64,000 nucleotides of DNA from Balneolaceae bacterium (lineage in GTDB: Bacteria > Bacteroidota > Rhodothermia > Balneolales > Balneolaceae): positions 2,318,976-2,382,975 of the forward strand of contig CP051242.1 of NCBI GenBank assembly GCA_017795005.1, given 5' to 3'. Numbering within the stretch: position 1 is the first letter of the stretch; the number at the start of each line of letters is the position of its first letter. The translations under genes and the position numbers were made by a program. A model generated the notes under the pieces. It ran no database searches. It was given only the letters and a program-made list of their open reading frames with translations, and was not told the DNA's origin. Shown here in pieces: positions 35,356 through 41,528 of this stretch.

Positions 35356-35997
35356 CTAATCCTTTCCCGGATCGATTAACTTCCTTGCAATTCCTTTGGA
35401 AACAGCCTCAGAACGACTATGGACCTCCAGTTTCTGATAGATATTACGGATATGATGCCGAACCCCATCCACAGAAAGAAATATTGATTTCCCAATAGCT
35501 GCATATGATTTACCGGTCGCCAGTTCTTTGAGAATCTCAAGTTCGCGTTCACTTAGCTTTTCTTCTTCTTTGATCTCAGGAGCATGGAGCGTTTTTAGAA
35601 TTTTGCGTGCAATATTTGGTGTAATTGGGGAGCCTCCTGAAAAAGCATCTTTTACGGCTGCTACCATTTCATCGGGAGTAACTTTTTTCATCAGGTATCC
35701 AACTGCACCTGCTTTTATGGCATTGAAAATGTTTTCATCGTCATCGAAAACAGTAGCCATAATTACATGCATTGTCGGGAATGAATTTCGCACATGTTGT
35801 ACGCCTTCAATTCCCGACATCCCCGGCAAGCCAATATCCATAATCACTACTTCTGCTTTCTTAAATTCTGAAGAAGTAAATGCTTCTTCACAGCTTCCAA
35901 AACTTCCGATTACGCATAAACCGGGATCATAATCAATAAAGGTTTCCCAGCCTTCTCTCATGTACTTGTTGTCTTCAATAATAACTACTTTAATCAA
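35356..35997 (-). CDS. NarL/FixJ-family response regulator
   Basis: A 213-aa regulator: receiver domain with the acceptor Asp54 in VIMDIGLPGM, then a LuxR-type HTH (KLSERELEILKELATGKSYA, IGKSIFLSVDGVRHHIRNIYQKL). The TTG at 35997 is the likely start. It gives the family length, LIKVVIIEDN is the usual receiver opening, and GGAG stands seven bases upstream. In-frame starts at 36060 and 36132 would add extensions without resemblance to the family. It follows its partner kinase, and a 7-2-7 palindrome lies between them. DNA-binding output is inferred to include that palindrome. Confidence 0.85.
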   Translation of the reverse strand: MIKVVIIEDNKYMREGWETFIDYDPGLCVIGSFGSCEEAFTSSEFKKAEVVIMDIGLPGMSGIEGVQHVRNSFPTMHVIMATVFDDDENIFNAIKAGAVGYLMKKVTPDEMVAAVKDAFSGGSPITPNIARKILKTLHAPEIKEEEKLSERELEILKELATGKSYAAIGKSIFLSVDGVRHHIRNIYQKLEVHSRSEAVSKGIARKLIDPGKD

Positions 35998-36165
35998 TGA
36001 ATTACTCCGTATTACTTCTTTGTTTAGGATAGCATAACCGTCTGTATGAGTATATAGCATAATTGTTGGATTAAATAATCCAGTCCCGATCAAAGGACAG
36101 AACAGGATCTCTATGTTTTGTGTGAAGGACACGATAGAGTTTACCTGCTTTTACAAATAATTACG

Positions 36166-36181
36166 CTACATACCTATGTGG
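36166..36181. promoter_or_regulatory. 7-2-7 palindrome, copy A
   Basis: CTACATA-CC-TATGTGG, one mismatch from the shared CCACATA-NN-TATGTGG. It lies directly after the kinase stop codon and upstream of the response regulator. On the minus strand it is preceded by CTTTGTAAA, similar to CTTTAAAAA before copy B. It is a candidate binding site of the NarL-family regulator. Confidence 0.55.
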
Positions 36182-36182
36182 T

Positions 36183-39044
36183 TTACAAAGGTAATTCCAT
36201 TCTCCAACGGGTTCCGAAATCTTCCTCTGAATGAATCTTGATGATCGCTCCGATCTTGGCTGCTCTTTTCCTGATGTTTTGGACTCCATTTCCTTCCTGA
36301 ATTTCATCCAGATCAAATCCTATTCCATTATCCTGCACAATTAACTTCAGTAAACCATTTTCAACATCCATGATCACATCCAGCCGTGTTGCTTTGGAAT
36401 GCCGAACTGCGTTTGTAATCATTTCCTTGAAAATCATCCACAGGTGTTGACGGACTTCCATGCTAAGTTTTCCGGGAATTTGTTCCGTGATATTCAGAGT
36501 ATATTCCAATTCTTTACTTTCCAGAAGGTCTGAAGCAAAACGACGACATTTGGATAAGAACAACTCCCAACTATCATTTTCAGGGTTGATGGACCAAACT
36601 ATATCCGTAATTTTCTCTTTGGCATCACCTGCACTTTCAGTAATCAGAGAAATAAAATGTGCTGATTTAGATTCATCTTTATCCCGTTTGATAGCTTCTG
36701 CAAAATAACTGATCCCTGTAAGTGTGGCACTCACTTCATCGTGAAGATCGCTGGCTATTTTGGTCCGCATTCGCTCCACTTTTAACAGCTGATTTACCCG
36801 AATCTTGTATCCCGTATACAGTAATCCAGAAAAACTTATGAAGTACAACATATACGCCCACCAGGTTCGGTACCAGGGAGGAAGTACGGTGAACGCGACT
36901 TGATCCGGTTTTCCATCTACTTCATAAACATTCCGGCTTCTGACTTTAAATATATATTCCCCTTCCGGGATGTTGGTATAATCTTTCTGGGTTTCCAGCG
37001 ACCATTCACTCCAATCGCTGTCAAAACCCTCCAGTTTGTAGGAATAGGTATTTCTGGTCTCATCTATATAACTGGCAGCCGCATAATTAAACCGCACTTC
37101 ATTGTCTTCATAAGGAAGAACAATGGGCTTCACTGGTTCGCCAAATCCGCCATAGATTAGAGAATCCCGTTTAACGTAAATGTCTGTGATGTTGGTTTTG
37201 AAATCGGTTTGGTAGTTCCAGTCTGTTTTTCTGAGTCTATGTAAGCCATTATCTCCCCCAAAAAATAATTCAGTAGAGAGAGAAAAGAGATCAAATATAT
37301 TTTCTTTGTTCAATAGTGGAGCAAACCTTTCGAAAGCAGTTTTCCAAACATTTTTTTCTCTATAAACAAGTTTCAGTTTTTTATCATTAATGAACCAAAT
37401 AGAATCATTATTAACTTTATGAAATCGAAAAACTTGTTTTTCAGAAATCGTGAAATTTCCAAAACTCAAATCTTTGATAAATTTATTACTATCCTTTTCA
37501 AATTTGAAGAGCCCGTTACTTGTTCCGATTCTAAGTGTATTATCTATTATATTAGCATCCCATATCTTAAATCCCTCAAGGCCCGATATTTGTTCTTTAT
37601 AAATCACAGAATCTTCAGCTACTTTGATTCTAAAAACATCATTTTCTCTAGTTAAACCCCATGCAAACTTATCATCATACAAAACTTTTATTACTGAATT
37701 ATTGGATGAAAGGATGCGCTTTGAATACTCATTTTTTTTTAGGTCATAAATATAAATACCTTCGTCTTTGGCAAAAAACACCTTTTCGTTTTCATAAAAA
37801 AAGAAATCATTTACTATTTCATCTGATATGAGTTCAATCTTGTTTTCATCAATAACATAGATACCTTCCAAAGATGAGCCAAGGACATGTGATTGATTCG
37901 ATAGAACCTTTCTGAAATTGCCATTGATAACCTTATTAAAAGTAGTCAACCCCCTTTCCGATTTTTTAGAAGAAAACAAACCTCTATCTGTTCCAATAAA
38001 AAATGAATTCCCTTTAGAGTTGATTGAGTTAATATTTCCTTCTAGTAGATGCTGAGCATTGTATGATTCAAAAGGTACATTAATCAATATTTTGCTTACA
38101 CCATCGCCTGTTGCAAGCCAAAGAACACCTTCTTGATCAATATTTAATCCAAGAATTGTGTTATCAGAAATTGGAGTGTTATCCTGTTCATTCTTTTCTT
38201 TAAGGATAAAATTTAGTTCTCCTTTTTTTGTAAAACTTACAATACCAGATCCAAGAGTTCCCAAAACAAAATTAGAGGAGTCAATCCAGGAACCTCTATA
38301 AACCTCTACATTATCTAAAAATTCACCTGCTTCCGTTTCCAAAGAACTTACTTTCTCATCTTTATAAACATATAACCCACTATTCAAAGATCCGATAATC
38401 CAATCATTTTTATCTCTTAATACTACTTGTGGATATTTCATATTCAGAGAATCTAATCCATTTAATTTTTTAAAACTGCTTCCTTCTAGTTCAAAAAATT
38501 CTCCGTTATTTTTTTTTACTAAAATGCTATCACCTAGTTGAAAAGATGCATATGGTTCAAAAGAAGGATTTAAAAATTCAGTTTTAATATTATTCCAAAC
38601 TATAAATCCATCTCTGGTCTGAAAAAATATTTTATTCTTCGACTCAAAAATATTCCAGATATCACCAATTAATGAATCAGCGATATTAAATTCATCCTTA
38701 AGACTTTTTGGTGCAATTGCATTCGATGAATCATACTTAATTATACCAAAATCATTTTCTCCACCATAGTATAAACTACCTTCTGATGAGATGAATAGTG
38801 ATAAAACATACGTTGAATTTGGAACATGTCTCCAATCCCATTTTACTCCATCGAACCAAACTAGACCTTGACCATTACCTATAAATATGAAACCGTTCGA
38901 GTCTTGAACAACTGAATAATTTTGCTTAAAAAGCTCGAATTCCTTTAGGTCGTAGCTTTTGTTAATAGGAAACCCCTGTCCGGTAACACAAACAGGGGTT
39001 AGTACTATTAAAATAAACGTAATTTTTATTCGATGATAATTCAA
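36183..39044 (-). CDS. Propeller-type sensor histidine kinase (reg_prop/Y_Y_Y/HisKA_3)
   Basis: A 953-aa membrane kinase with a signal peptide (about 1-23), a large periplasmic two-component-regulator propeller (about 30-600, with blades such as GNGQGLVWFDGVKW), a Y_Y_Y domain (about 650-725, FDSDWSEWS), one membrane helix near 735-755, HisKA_3 with phospho-acceptor His768 in SDLHDEVSATLTG, and HATPase_c with NAVRHSKAT and DNGIGFD. There is no receiver. The start is TTG, 14 bases after the GGGG-protein stop. The propeller half is markedly AT-rich (about 28-30 percent GC in sampled blocks) and the kinase half is 35-52 percent, so the gene looks composite. Confidence 0.88.
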   Translation of the reverse strand: MNYHRIKITFILIVLTPVCVTGQGFPINKSYDLKEFELFKQNYSVVQDSNGFIFIGNGQGLVWFDGVKWDWRHVPNSTYVLSLFISSEGSLYYGGENDFGIIKYDSSNAIAPKSLKDEFNIADSLIGDIWNIFESKNKIFFQTRDGFIVWNNIKTEFLNPSFEPYASFQLGDSILVKKNNGEFFELEGSSFKKLNGLDSLNMKYPQVVLRDKNDWIIGSLNSGLYVYKDEKVSSLETEAGEFLDNVEVYRGSWIDSSNFVLGTLGSGIVSFTKKGELNFILKEKNEQDNTPISDNTILGLNIDQEGVLWLATGDGVSKILINVPFESYNAQHLLEGNINSINSKGNSFFIGTDRGLFSSKKSERGLTTFNKVINGNFRKVLSNQSHVLGSSLEGIYVIDENKIELISDEIVNDFFFYENEKVFFAKDEGIYIYDLKKNEYSKRILSSNNSVIKVLYDDKFAWGLTRENDVFRIKVAEDSVIYKEQISGLEGFKIWDANIIDNTLRIGTSNGLFKFEKDSNKFIKDLSFGNFTISEKQVFRFHKVNNDSIWFINDKKLKLVYREKNVWKTAFERFAPLLNKENIFDLFSLSTELFFGGDNGLHRLRKTDWNYQTDFKTNITDIYVKRDSLIYGGFGEPVKPIVLPYEDNEVRFNYAAASYIDETRNTYSYKLEGFDSDWSEWSLETQKDYTNIPEGEYIFKVRSRNVYEVDGKPDQVAFTVLPPWYRTWWAYMLYFISFSGLLYTGYKIRVNQLLKVERMRTKIASDLHDEVSATLTGISYFAEAIKRDKDESKSAHFISLITESAGDAKEKITDIVWSINPENDSWELFLSKCRRFASDLLESKELEYTLNITEQIPGKLSMEVRQHLWMIFKEMITNAVRHSKATRLDVIMDVENGLLKLIVQDNGIGFDLDEIQEGNGVQNIRKRAAKIGAIIKIHSEEDFGTRWRMELPL

Positions 39045-39058
39045 TTATTTAAGATGGT

Positions 39059-39487
39059 TCATCCGCCACCGCCCACTGGTGGGTGCTTGATATTAATGTT
39101 AATATGAGTATCAGATTGAGGATGAGGGCAATTATTTTGTTTTATGAGAATTAGAGTATATTTCTTTGAAGTTATTATCCCAGGATAAGGTGTTCCTGGA
39201 ATTTCTTCCATCTCAATTAAGTCTACAATAAAACTTTTTTGGATATAGTCTTTGCAACCAGTAGCATATTCAATCTCAAAATAATACTTTGCTTCGTTTT
39301 TATGGTCAATATCTTGAGTAGATAAAAAAGACAAATGAATTTCAGGTGCATCATAATCTTCAATTTCAACTCCACCTGCTCCTTTAATTATTTTTTTCCT
39401 TACTGTACCCCCAACACCACAAAAGGCATTTAAAATAATTTCTTTGGTATTATTTGTAGTTGTTTTATTTGTAATTGAAATAGACAT
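39059..39487 (-). CDS. Uncharacterised 142-aa protein with GGGG C-terminus
   Basis: I do not recognise a family. There is no signal peptide or membrane segment. The N-terminus is Ser/Thr/Asn-rich (SISITNKTTTNNTKE), and a GGTVRKKIIKGAGGVEIEDY stretch and beta-type segments follow. It has three Cys (23, 78, 120), and the tail is NIKHPPVGGGG. It lies 10 bases after the subtilase and 14 before the kinase, so the three genes form one transcript. A flexible poly-Gly terminus may be a protease recognition or conjugation tail. It could be a peptide precursor, an inhibitor/chaperone of the protease or a modifier; none is proven. Confidence 0.65.
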   Translation of the reverse strand: MSISITNKTTTNNTKEIILNAFCGVGGTVRKKIIKGAGGVEIEDYDAPEIHLSFLSTQDIDHKNEAKYYFEIEYATGCKDYIQKSFIVDLIEMEEIPGTPYPGIITSKKYTLILIKQNNCPHPQSDTHININIKHPPVGGGG

Positions 39488-39497
39488 TTTTTTTTAT

Positions 39498-40871
39498 TTA
39501 AAGGTTATTTAGTACTGAAATATTTTGATCTGTAGGCGCTTGTATGAAGCCAAATCCAGTATCAAAAAAATTGTTTCCATCTTGAATTGTTTTTTTTGAA
39601 GTCTCTTTCAGAACCTTTCTTAGGTTTTGAATATTAAACTCTACGTTCTTCGACTCAAAAGCATTAATCCACAATGCAATTACTCCAGAAACATGTGGAG
39701 CAGCTGCACTTGTATCCCAGAATTCTTTATAGGATCCATTGTCAGATACTGTACATGTATAGTCTCCTGGAGCTACAAAATCTATCCCTCTGTTTTGTTT
39801 ACTGTCCAAGATTAATAATCCTTCATACTTAGTAACTGCCCCTACGCTTAATACGTTATTTGCAATTTCTGGGAATCTTACATATCCAAGGTGAGCATCT
39901 CTCGAATACTCTCCAAAAAAAGAGCGTGAACTTCCATTACCAGCAGAAGAAACAAACACAGTGGGCTTTGAGTATTGGACAAGGTTGATTAAAAATTCAA
40001 TTGTTCTGACTGTCTCTTGAAAAATCCAGAATATCTTGTTAATAACATCTACTTTAAATTGATCTTGTTTATTTTTGAGTTCCTCTAATAATAAAGGAGC
40101 AACACTTTTACCAAACGACATTGAAATTATATCTGCACCCTCCCTACACGACCATAAAATTGCTTCATACAAATCGATTATATCAAAGTATTTGAAACTT
40201 GGTATTACTCGGGAAACAATTAACTTCTCAATATTCCTAGCTAAGCCGATTCTCATTAATTTTGAGTATTTTCTAAAGTATACATCTCTAGAGCAAATTA
40301 TTGATGCGCACTGAGTCCCATGCATTCCCCCAACTAATTTACTCCTGTCACCTAATTTTTCTACAAAATTTTTGAATGCTATCTTTTTCTCATTATCCAC
40401 TACATCGTTTAAGTAGGAAAGTCCACTATTCGATATATTAATCCCATCATCTATTATCGCAATTTTTACACCACTTCCACAGAAATCTGATTTATTAGCC
40501 CCTATTTCCGAGATCCCCCAAGAAGCCCCATTTGAAAAGTTTGAACAATCTTCACTCCGTTTTTCAAAGGTTTGAAGACCTTTTAGCTTAATTTTTTGAT
40601 CATTAAAAAAAGGAGAAATCCATATTACATCTTCTCGCCTTGACTTTTTTAGTAACATTTTATCATCAAGGTATTCCTTAGATACTTGGAGGAGACTTAT
40701 ATCAAAATCATTTGTAGGTATAATAGAACCTGTAGTTGAATCTCTTTTTAATGGATTCCCTAAGTAATAGAATAGTATGTAGAAATCAGACTTTGGAATA
40801 GATATATGATTATTTTTTATTCTGTAATAAAAATTATCTTTTAGTATCCGATTCTTAGACTTGAATATCAC
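39498..40871 (-). CDS. Subtilisin-like serine protease (S8) without signal peptide
   Basis: A 457-aa subtilase with a complete triad: Asp141 (IAIIDDG), His184 (GGMHGTQCA), Ser388 (WDTSAAAPHVSG) and oxyanion Asn312 (SSAGNG). Residues 1-130 may be a prodomain. No hydrophobic N-terminal segment is seen, so it is probably cytoplasmic or released in another way. The start is GTG. Cytosolic S8 proteases mature peptides in cyanobactin and some lanthipeptide systems, which is a precedent for a role in processing the neighbouring 80-aa protein. It is first in the protease-GGGG-kinase-regulator gene set. AT-rich codon use matches the island. Confidence 0.88.
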   Translation of the reverse strand: MIFKSKNRILKDNFYYRIKNNHISIPKSDFYILFYYLGNPLKRDSTTGSIIPTNDFDISLLQVSKEYLDDKMLLKKSRREDVIWISPFFNDQKIKLKGLQTFEKRSEDCSNFSNGASWGISEIGANKSDFCGSGVKIAIIDDGINISNSGLSYLNDVVDNEKKIAFKNFVEKLGDRSKLVGGMHGTQCASIICSRDVYFRKYSKLMRIGLARNIEKLIVSRVIPSFKYFDIIDLYEAILWSCREGADIISMSFGKSVAPLLLEELKNKQDQFKVDVINKIFWIFQETVRTIEFLINLVQYSKPTVFVSSAGNGSSRSFFGEYSRDAHLGYVRFPEIANNVLSVGAVTKYEGLLILDSKQNRGIDFVAPGDYTCTVSDNGSYKEFWDTSAAAPHVSGVIALWINAFESKNVEFNIQNLRKVLKETSKKTIQDGNNFFDTGFGFIQAPTDQNISVLNNL

Positions 40872-40959
40872 AAATATTGGCTTTTATGCAATTACGTTAA
40901 AGCCCGGCAGACGTCCCCGTACATCCCTAATGTCTTTTAGCCTTTTCGAATTAAAATTA

Positions 40960-40977
40960 TTGGCACCTAAATTGCAA
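40960..40977 (+). promoter_or_regulatory. Sigma-54-type promoter motif reading to the right
   Basis: TTGGCACCTAAATTGCAA matches the -24/-12 sigma-54 consensus (YTGGCACNNNNNTTGCW) with the exact ten-base interval between GG and GC. It faces the plus strand, away from the protease gene, in the 304-base gap. No plus-strand ORF follows; the nearest terminator-like hairpin is at 41121-41149, so a transcript of about 165 bases is possible. Confidence 0.4.
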
Positions 40978-41080
40978 ATCTAATATTCATAGTAATGTTT
41001 TAGTAACATGCTGTAATATCAGGTTTAACTTTAAGGTGTTTAATTTGAATACAGGATAGCTACTACAAATAAAGCTCTCA

Positions 41081-41096
41081 CCACATATATATGTGG
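41081..41096. promoter_or_regulatory. 7-2-7 palindrome, copy B
   Basis: CCACATATATATGTGG, a perfect 16-base palindrome in the gap upstream of the subtilase operon (210 bases before its GTG). The flank TATGTGGTGAGAG on the minus strand resembles TATGTGGTGATAG at copy C. It is followed on the plus strand by five T, so a role as hairpin in a plus-strand RNA is also possible. Confidence 0.6.
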
Positions 41097-41120
41097 TTTT
41101 TAAAGACTGGATGTGTTTCA

Positions 41121-41149
41121 ATAAAAAAGCCACCTGATTGGGTGGCTTT
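41121..41149 (-). terminator. Terminator of the 80-aa peptide gene
   Basis: GCCACC / GGTGGC stem extended by AAA/TTT with a six-base loop and, on the minus strand, a run of T. It is near-identical to the ald terminator at 41501-41528. It can probably act in both directions. Confidence 0.8.
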
Positions 41150-41175
41150 GTATTTTTAAAAAATATGAAACTTGA

Positions 41176-41418
41176 TTAACATATCTTTTTTATTAGCTTT
41201 ATTGCCCACTTAAGAAGCTTACATATACGCTTCCATTTTCCGGTAGCATTTTTGCAAATTTCTTCTACTAAAGGTTCTAATATAGAAAGAACTACTTCAC
41301 AAACATTCCCTTTCTCGGCAAGAGTTGAAACTCCTTTAGCTGACCTAGCTGACTCATATGTGTTAACCTTTGCTTCCAGGTCATCCAATAATTTTGAAGA
41401 AATTAAATTTTCATCCAT
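41176..41418 (-). CDS. 80-aa peptide precursor-like protein, cationic four-Cys tail
   Basis: Of no known family to me. Residues 1-39 are mixed-charge and helical (MDENLISSKLLDDLEAKVNT and on). Residues 40-80 hold four cysteines at 40, 55, 66 and 80, and after residue 55 there are nine Lys/Arg and no acidic residue (CKLLKWAIKLIKKIC at the end), an amphipathic, membrane-active type of sequence. The split suggests a leader plus core, as in ribosomally made antimicrobial or signalling peptides, with a possible saposin-like disulfide pairing. There is no GG leader-cleavage site or signal peptide. Palindrome C stands 65 bases upstream. A terminator follows, so it is a single-gene transcript. Confidence 0.7.
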   Translation of the reverse strand: MDENLISSKLLDDLEAKVNTYESARSAKGVSTLAEKGNVCEVVLSILEPLVEEICKNATGKWKRICKLLKWAIKLIKKIC

Positions 41419-41482
41419 AACTTTGCGTTTTGTTAATATTAAAATGTTGACCTCAATTAACTTTGCTTCAGAGTAACTATCA

Positions 41483-41498
41483 CCACATAACTATGTGG
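41483..41498. promoter_or_regulatory. 7-2-7 palindrome, copy C
   Basis: CCACATA-AC-TATGTGG, with perfect heptamer arms, upstream of the 80-aa peptide gene and just after the ald terminator. Its position 65-80 bases before the ATG suits an activator site. Confidence 0.6.
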
Positions 41499-41500
41499 AA

Positions 41501-41528
41501 ATAAAAAGCCACCCGATCGGGTGGCTTT
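41501..41528 (-). terminator. Terminator of ald
   Basis: GCCACCCGATCGGGTGGC is an 18-base perfect palindrome (41508-41525) followed on the minus strand by a T-run. It separates ald from the island. Confidence 0.85.

What the first reader, a model, noticed from the sequence alone, without database searches (positions are those of the whole stretch)
35356..41528. A self-contained peptide/protease/two-component island, apparently undescribed
Seen in sequence: on one strand, an 80-aa cationic Cys-bearing protein, a signal-less S8 protease, a 142-aa protein ending GGGG, a propeller histidine kinase and a NarL-type regulator, with one shared palindrome before three of the units and an AT-rich composition. 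Known: S8 proteases process peptides in cyanobactin and lanthipeptide systems, and extracytoplasmic propeller kinases sense soluble ligands. Inference: the peptide (matured by S8, helped by the GGGG protein) is made under kinase control and may itself be the ligand or an effector against neighbours.
Basis: partly seen in the sequence, partly recalled or inferred. Interest (0 to 1): 0.85.

Follow-up and report, generated by a model that had tools for sequence, protein, structure and literature searches.

The report
Swappable sensor-and-partner cassette in Balneolaceae
What looked like a one-off peptide and protease island is one version of a signalling locus in which related bacteria keep the same kinase and regulator but carry different sensor halves together with matching small partner proteins, much as some Gram-positive bacteria do with their self-recognition signals.

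Summary
In detail: an 80-aa cationic Cys peptide, S8 protease, 142-aa protein ending GGGG, propeller histidine kinase (HK) and NarL regulator (RR) lie on one strand. A palindrome precedes three units; the genome's only two exact copies lie here. The interpretation needs replacing. The recurrent unit is small protein–HK–RR: 41 of 43 assessable HKs in the order have a small ORF directly upstream, usually with a short proline tail. In several Balneolaceae genera the small gene and the HK's sensor half are exchanged as one cassette; kinase half and RR stay. G398 and G258 share RR 100%, kinase 97%, but sensor 27% and small protein 25%. The kinase tree fits genera; the sensor tree follows small-protein class across genera (partial Mantel p=0.0002; AU tests). 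This is the mosaic of agr/comQXPA pherotype loci, without their genes. S8 with the 142-aa type recurs in one other genome; the 80-aa peptide in none searched. Best reading: a polymorphic self-sensing locus with the small protein as ligand, and peptide and protease as allele-specific outputs. The polymorphism is shown; ligand function is inferred, and most small proteins lack a signal peptide.

The parts
35356..36060 (-). NarL-type response regulator (ORF open to 36132; start 36060 gives 234 aa and matches the G139 homologue)
   Evidence: Response_reg and GerE; 62% identical to the G065 RR, 89% to G139
36166..36181 (.). palindrome CTACATACCTATGTGG between HK and RR
   Evidence: a palindrome with at most 2 mismatches lies after the HK stop in 28 of 41 loci (18 of 27 of the window's family)
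36183..37223 (-). HK conserved part: Y_Y_Y, membrane helix, HisKA_3, HATPase (about residues 608-953)
37224..39044 (-). HK variable part: signal peptide (by eye) and extracytoplasmic propeller sensor (residues 1-607), inside the swapped cassette
   Evidence: no DNA match to G139 or G077 inside it; 28% protein identity to G139 against 90% for the kinase part
39059..39487 (-). 142-aa small partner protein, no signal peptide, inside the swapped cassette
39062..39109 (-). C-terminal tail THININIKHPPVGGGG (counterpart in G065: THIDVNIVHPDTD)
39498..40871 (-). signal-less S8 peptidase with D141/H184/S388 (triad assigned from recall of S8 motifs); allele-specific cargo
40899..40941 (-). conserved 43-nt leader element just before the cargo; left border of similarity with G139 and G077
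   Evidence: no Rfam match
41081..41096 (.). exact palindrome CCACATATATATGTGG before the S8 operon
41126..41150 (-). terminator hairpin after the 80-aa gene (read by eye)
   Evidence: a Phe_leader match below its gathering score covers it
41176..41418 (-). 80-aa peptide: Cys 40/55/66/80, anionic helix 39-56 and cationic helix 61-79
   Evidence: AlphaFold2 hairpin, block pLDDT 86-89; charge +8 in residues 57-80
41483..41498 (.). exact palindrome CCACATAACTATGTGG, starting 80 nt before the 80-aa ATG

Best explanation
The locus is one allele of a polymorphic signalling locus of Balneolaceae and their order: small partner protein, extracytoplasmic propeller HK, NarL RR. Shown: between close relatives in several genera the small gene and the sensor half of the HK gene are replaced together, with borders upstream of the first cargo gene and at about HK residue 560-690; kinase half and RR are retained; sensor type and small-protein type travel together across genera. 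Inferred: the small protein, probably through its short proline-containing C-terminal tail, is the cognate ligand (or ligand precursor) of the sensor propeller; phosphorylated RR binds the CCACAT-N4-ATGTGG palindromes and raises expression of its own operon, closing a self-sensing feedback loop; in this allele it also switches on the S8 protease and a cationic, Cys-paired helical hairpin peptide that may act on neighbours. Functionally this would resemble agr or comQXPA pherotype systems in a Gram-negative lineage.
For: Same four genes and palindrome in G065. Same-genus genomes G139 and G077 carry, at the same site between ald and the LolC-like gene, a related kinase half and RR with other cargo: a trypsin-like protease + 196-aa protein, or a 130-aa protein alone. 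G398 against G258: RR 100, kinase part 97, sensor 27 (551 aligned), small 25% (71 aligned); DNA 96% right of HK residue 635 and 86-91% left, no match between. No DNA match inside the cassette in 11 of 13 close pairs; the two exceptions are the pairs with the most similar sensors. Kinase tree of 26 rows fits genera (7 changes, the minimum); sensor tree needs 11, with all 3 g1 rows and all 5 g2 rows apart. The 5 exported GH[IV]CxP..C-type tails, a class noted before the tree was built, form one 100/100 sensor clade from three genera. Partial Mantel small~sensor given kinase: r=0.46, p=0.001 (39 loci); r=0.34, p=0.0002 (17 loci); within-genus shuffles p=0.0006; small~kinase given sensor: p 0.94 and 0.70. 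AU tests reject three genus/species groupings for the sensor and two class groupings for the kinase. Small ORF directly upstream in 41 of 43 assessable HKs (judged by reading).
Against: No binding, expression or phenotype data. Neighbouring genes can be co-inherited by linkage alone. Most small proteins, the 142-aa one included, show no signal peptide, while the sensor is extracytoplasmic; only the 5 GHxC-class proteins, G258's, and the first of two tandem copies in G046 and G127 look exported, so a route out is missing. Small-protein classes are mostly not demonstrably homologous (profile comparison A-B 0.14%, A-C 47%, B-C 31%, D-E 94% probability). The tail consensus is loose: 28 of 41 match one regex, and rows are related. 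HP tails occur in more than one sensor clade. Genera g6 and g188 are not hypervariable (sensor 57-88%). G077 stands apart from the other g1 kinases (64 and 61%). The RR may have targets outside the locus (total of 172 forward 1-mismatch sites against 83 for the reversed control in 16 genomes), so the loop need not be closed. The 142-aa structure model is unusable (pLDDT 34).
Confidence: 0.5

Rival explanations
1. The small protein is a co-encoded feedback regulator or accessory subunit of the HK (a CpxP-like inhibitor or a ligand-presenting protein); sensor and partner co-evolve because they bind, but the sensed signal is environmental.
For: Same co-inheritance data; exported lipoprotein-like versions exist; the palindromes in the operon give feedback by themselves.
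Against: Does not by itself explain why whole sensor and partner are replaced at the same site in near-identical backgrounds; many partners look cytosolic.
Confidence: 0.25
2. A conflict or defence locus: variable cytosolic effectors (S8, trypsin-like protease, small protein, cationic peptide) kept under one envelope-sensing two-component system; variation reflects an arms race with phages or competitors.
For: Proteases of two unrelated families without signal peptides in the same slot; one of the next S8 relatives lies beside a caspase and a CHAT protein; generic PADLOC subtilase match.
Against: Proteases seen at 3 loci only; the recurrent partner is the small protein; PADLOC gave only this generic single-protein match for the window proteins tested (PHROGs not searched).
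Confidence: 0.15
3. Linkage only: a recombination hot spot imports sensor halves adapted to different environmental ligands, and the small gene merely travels along.
For: The small gene lies beside the sensor-coding half; borders lie in conserved flanks.
Against: A small gene is found at 41 of 43 loci, and none with such a tail at 7 more distant propeller-HK loci (one of these does have a 137-aa tail-less ORF 110 nt upstream); class-specific tails are conserved while bodies diverge.
Confidence: 0.1

Closest known systems
comQXPA (Bacillus) and agr (Staphylococcus) pherotype loci
   Same: Variable signal gene(s) plus variable sensor half of the HK, conserved kinase half and regulator; one operon. 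comQXPA polymorphism and exchangeable comQ-comX-comP read in passages of PMC4408185; the split within ComP, and agr, are recalled.
   Different: No ComQ, AgrB or peptide exporter recognised; partner is a protein of mostly 80-260 aa, usually without signal peptide; sensor is a propeller, not a membrane bundle; Gram-negative order.
Three-component bacteriocin regulons (plantaricin type; recalled)
   Same: Signal-like protein, HK and RR, plus a cationic peptide gene under the same promoter element.
   Different: No bacteriocin exporter or immunity gene recognised beside it; the 80-aa gene was found in one genome only.
Bacteroides propeller hybrid two-component systems of polysaccharide loci (recalled)
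   Same: Reg_prop/Y_Y_Y propeller sensor and neighbouring regulated genes.
   Different: Separate HisKA_3 kinase and NarL regulator; no glycan genes in the unit; swapped small protein.
S8 proteases of RiPP systems (PatA, LanP)
   Same: S8 beside a small peptide gene.
   Different: PatA model matched only at E=0.004 over part of the S8 core; no modification enzyme among the five genes; best solved-structure matches are intracellular serine proteases.

Membership tests
agr/comQXPA-type pherotype locus | hypervariable signal gene and sensor half beside conserved kinase half and RR | tested here: met
   (for the Balneolaceae genera g1, g2, g5; not for g6 and g188)
agr/comQXPA-type pherotype locus | peptide-processing/export gene (AgrB, ComQ) | tested here: not met
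   none among the five window genes by profile; the other loci were only read by eye as ORF lists, one print partly cut
agr/comQXPA-type pherotype locus | secreted signal activates cognate HK only | not testable with these tools
   needs bench work
RiPP system with S8 maturation protease | conserved precursor peptide beside the protease | tested here: not met
   80-aa gene absent beside the G065 S8 and without credible relatives in 92 genomes
S8 subtilase | D/H/S triad and family profile | tested here: met
HisKA_3 / NarL two-component pair | phosphoacceptor kinase, receiver and GerE domains, co-directional | tested here: met
antimicrobial or saposin-like peptide (80 aa) | disulfide helical hairpin with known fold relatives | tested here: inconclusive
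   hairpin predicted; PDB fold search gave nothing at E<=0.001

The most novel reading that the evidence does not exclude
An undescribed Gram-negative self/non-self recognition system: each lineage carries one of many interchangeable ligand–receptor alleles (small tailed protein + propeller sensor half) feeding a common kinase–regulator chassis, with allele-specific weapons (protease, cationic hairpin peptide) attached to the same regulon. For signal-less alleles the small protein could be a danger cue released when kin lyse.
Probability: 0.35. Interest if true: 0.92.

Novelty: new variant of a known kind. Interest (0 to 1): 0.8.

Why it matters
Polymorphic ligand–kinase loci are known to me mainly from Gram-positive bacteria. 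A locus where two close genomes share an identical regulator and a 97% identical kinase half but 27% identical sensors, each with its own small protein, points to selection on recognition. It gives defined pairs for testing cell-to-cell recognition in a group for which my few open-access searches found no described peptide signalling, and a possible reason why propeller kinases are so variable.

Tried and rejected
Tried without result: viral contigs with S8 and the leader element; genome contigs with the small-protein pair and the S8 pair, which returned only CP030887.1, very probably G065 itself; plasmids with the 142-aa and 80-aa proteins and phages with the 80-aa one; PDB sequence search for the 80-aa and 142-aa proteins; AlphaFold for the 142-aa protein; PDB fold search for the 80-aa model; Rfam, which gave only three matches below their gathering scores, at the terminators; RNA fold of the leader element, z-scores -0.83 to 0.62; Pfam for the 452-aa gene behind the off-site palindrome (no family). 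Palindrome sites elsewhere: 16 genomes have 6-17 forward sites at up to 1 mismatch against 0-9 for the reversed control (172 against 83 in sum); locus sites explain part of the excess; list cut, not followed up.

Rejected: peptide–protease RiPP island (80-aa not found again); GGGG as a functional signature (G065 lacks it, though several HP-tail proteins end in Gly); one common fold for all small proteins (one search does not show it).

Rows left out: of 51 order genomes with an HK match 44 were read as cassette loci; G163 and G054 were read only as controls, G301, G409, G428, G429 and G443 not at all. L124 and L134 are cut by contig ends; L137 has no small ORF; L135's 38-aa ORF is doubtful. 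The 41-row table of small proteins includes L135 and only one of L136's two. Mantel used 39 of these 41 (two under 60 aa dropped). Trees used 26 rows, genera g1, g2, g4-g8 and g10 only. The 339 control proteins still hold at least some second copies (L108, L109, L136), which works against the contrast.
Full report
What is there. S8, HK and RR have clear profiles; the 80-aa and 142-aa proteins match no Pfam or NCBIfam family above cut-off. The S8 keeps its triad and has no signal peptide. The palindrome CCACAT-N4-ATGTGG occurs exactly twice in the 3.75-Mb genome, before the 80-aa gene and before the S8 operon, with a one-mismatch copy before the RR. The window genome shares its family code with G065, which is very probably the MAG named Balneolaceae bacterium CP030887.1.

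A second copy of the operon. G065, another genus of the family, has S8, a 148-aa partner, HK and RR in the same order and strand. The partner ends DTHIDVNIVHPDTD where ours ends DTHININIKHPPVGGGG. The only exact palindrome in the 3.49-Mb G065 genome lies just before its S8 gene. The 80-aa gene is not beside it. This S8 type is rare: 2 of 92 family genomes, the window's included, at E<=1e-25.

The same site in sister genomes. In G139 and G077 (same genus) the stretch between ald and the LolC-like gene holds the related kinase half and RR but different cargo: a trypsin-like protease without signal peptide plus a 196-aa protein in G139, a 130-aa protein alone in G077. DNA similarity between window and G139 covers the flanks, the RR and the HK down to residue 607, then stops; it returns for about 200 nt before the cargo, around palindrome and leader, and at ald.

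An order-wide locus. A search with the kinase half found 51 of 128 genomes of the order at E<=1e-60. I read 40 further loci, which with G065, G139, G077 and the window give 45 HKs, 43 not cut by a contig end. In 41 of 43 there is a same-strand ORF of about 47-264 aa, which I judged by reading to be the small gene, ending within 300 nt of the HK start or overlapping it. An RR was found within 1.6 kb downstream in 34 of the 41 tabulated loci; in the four g8 loci it lies upstream of the small gene instead, and at L129, L138 and L139 none was found there. At seven more distant propeller-HK loci (five outside the order, two paralogues in g2) no small ORF with such a tail was seen, though one has a 137-aa ORF 110 nt upstream. 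Beyond the order, a 394-genome phylum sample gave five genomes at E<=1e-70, with 37-42% identity.

Tails. The small proteins mostly end in a short stretch of hydrophobic-x-hydrophobic-x-x-Pro character: proline in the last 12 residues in 40 of 41 against 143 of 339 other proteins of these loci; one regex 28 of 41 against 27 of 339; [IV]xHP 9 of 41 against 4 of 339 (rows are related, so p-values flatter). One class (G139, G398, G038, G026, G069) ends GH[IV]CxP...C or SHLCDP...C; all five have a hydrophobic N-terminus. Within classes the tail is the best conserved part by eye. Across classes homology is mostly not shown.

Cassette exchange. Within genera: G398/G258 RR 100, kinase 97, sensor 27, small 25% (71 residues aligned); G139/window 89, 90, 28%, small 32% over only 31 residues; G038/G026 89, 84, 32, 34%; by contrast g6 and g188 pairs keep sensors at 57-88%. 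In 13 close pairs the right block begins at HK residue 563-689. A left block ends 28-379 nt before the first cargo gene in 9; 3 pairs have none; in G046/G127, whose cargo is itself similar, it runs into the cargo. 11 of 13 pairs have no DNA match inside the cassette. The kinase tree of 26 rows needs 7 genus changes, the minimum, with g4 nested among g1 and g7 among g5; the sensor tree needs 11 and separates all g1 and all g2 rows. Sensor clades match small-protein classes: the five GHxC proteins in one 100/100 clade from three genera; window with G065 (97/96); G077, G092, G293 and G089 (100/99). HP tails are found both in the window/G065 clade and in a second, weaker grouping (83/86). AU tests reject window+G139, g2 and G398+G258 as sensor clades and the GHxC class and window+G065 as kinase clades; these groups had been noted before the trees, the tests were decided on after them. 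Partial Mantel tests agree.

Regulation. A palindrome with at most 2 mismatches lies 0-35 nt after the HK stop in 17 of the 18 Balneolaceae loci first tested. Over all 41 loci it is 28 of 41, 18 of 27 within the family; g188 and some others have the variant CCGCAT-N4-ATGCGG, up to 112 nt away. Before the cargo a palindrome-like site with 0-4 mismatches starts 69-89 nt before the start codon in 12 of 12 g2, g5 and g7 loci, and 225-308 nt before it in the 5 g1 and g4 loci, which add a conserved leader element; G207 lacks a good one. The 80-aa gene has an exact copy starting 80 nt before its ATG. Elsewhere in the window genome one of four 1-mismatch sites lies 59-74 nt before a 452-aa gene with a signal-peptide-like start and no Pfam family: a candidate further target.

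The 80-aa peptide. AlphaFold predicts a helix 8-27 and a hairpin of helices 39-56 and 61-79. Cys 40/80 and 55/66 are at matching distances from the turn (15 and 14 residues), so two disulfides closing the hairpin are geometrically sensible (inference). Both hairpin helices are amphipathic (7 and 23 of 2000 shuffles reach their moments) and the second is strongly cationic. It resembles a membrane-active peptide; that is inference.

How it most likely works. Co-inheritance of sensor and small protein across genera, on a kept kinase and RR, is what a ligand–receptor pair under selection for diversity would give, and is the mosaic known from comQXPA (polymorphism read in passages of PMC4408185; the split within ComP is recalled) and agr (recalled). 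Linkage alone would give part of it. The missing step is export: most small proteins look cytosolic. Non-classical release, lysis, or proteolysis by the attached S8 or trypsin-like protease are possible; none is shown.

Literature. Searches in the open-access library for Balneolaceae or Bacteroidetes kinases with hypervariable sensors, propeller kinases or peptide pheromones listed no description of this locus (listings only, three of them empty). A conflict-system paper (PMC7159879, passages only) describes variable protease systems of another build.

Noticed in passing
window 40899-40941: 43-nt leader element CTAAAAGAYATTAG...GTACGG.GACGTCTGCCG conserved just before the cargo in 3 g1 loci, with a divergent form in 2 g4 loci, whatever the cargo is; no Rfam match or fold signal.
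   Followed up: partly
L006 84-1516 (G000:C1:1662359-1663791): Palindrome CCACATGCTTATGTAG 59-74 nt before a 452-aa gene with a signal-peptide-like start and no Pfam family: a possible target of the RR outside the window.
   Followed up: partly
L108 6974-8079 and L109 6951-8061 (oriented so that the HK is on the + strand): Tandem small ORFs, one with and one without a signal-like start, ending in the same HHP or QHP tails.
   Followed up: no
L110-L112, L115-L117, L119 after the RR (oriented): A palindrome (0-1 mismatch) about 190 nt before an AtuA-like (by recall) 456-aa gene, suggesting a further regulon member in g5 and g7.
   Followed up: no
L057 1365-5773: S8 relative in another family (G149) beside a caspase-domain protein and a CHAT protein.
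   Followed up: partly
window 41126-41150 and 41505-41528: Two near-identical terminator hairpins (GCCACC...GGTGGC), each followed by a palindrome, as if the terminator-promoter segment had been duplicated when the 80-aa gene was added.
   Followed up: no
L117 4837-5718 (oriented): IS110-like transposase (by eye) upstream of the G400 cassette.
   Followed up: no
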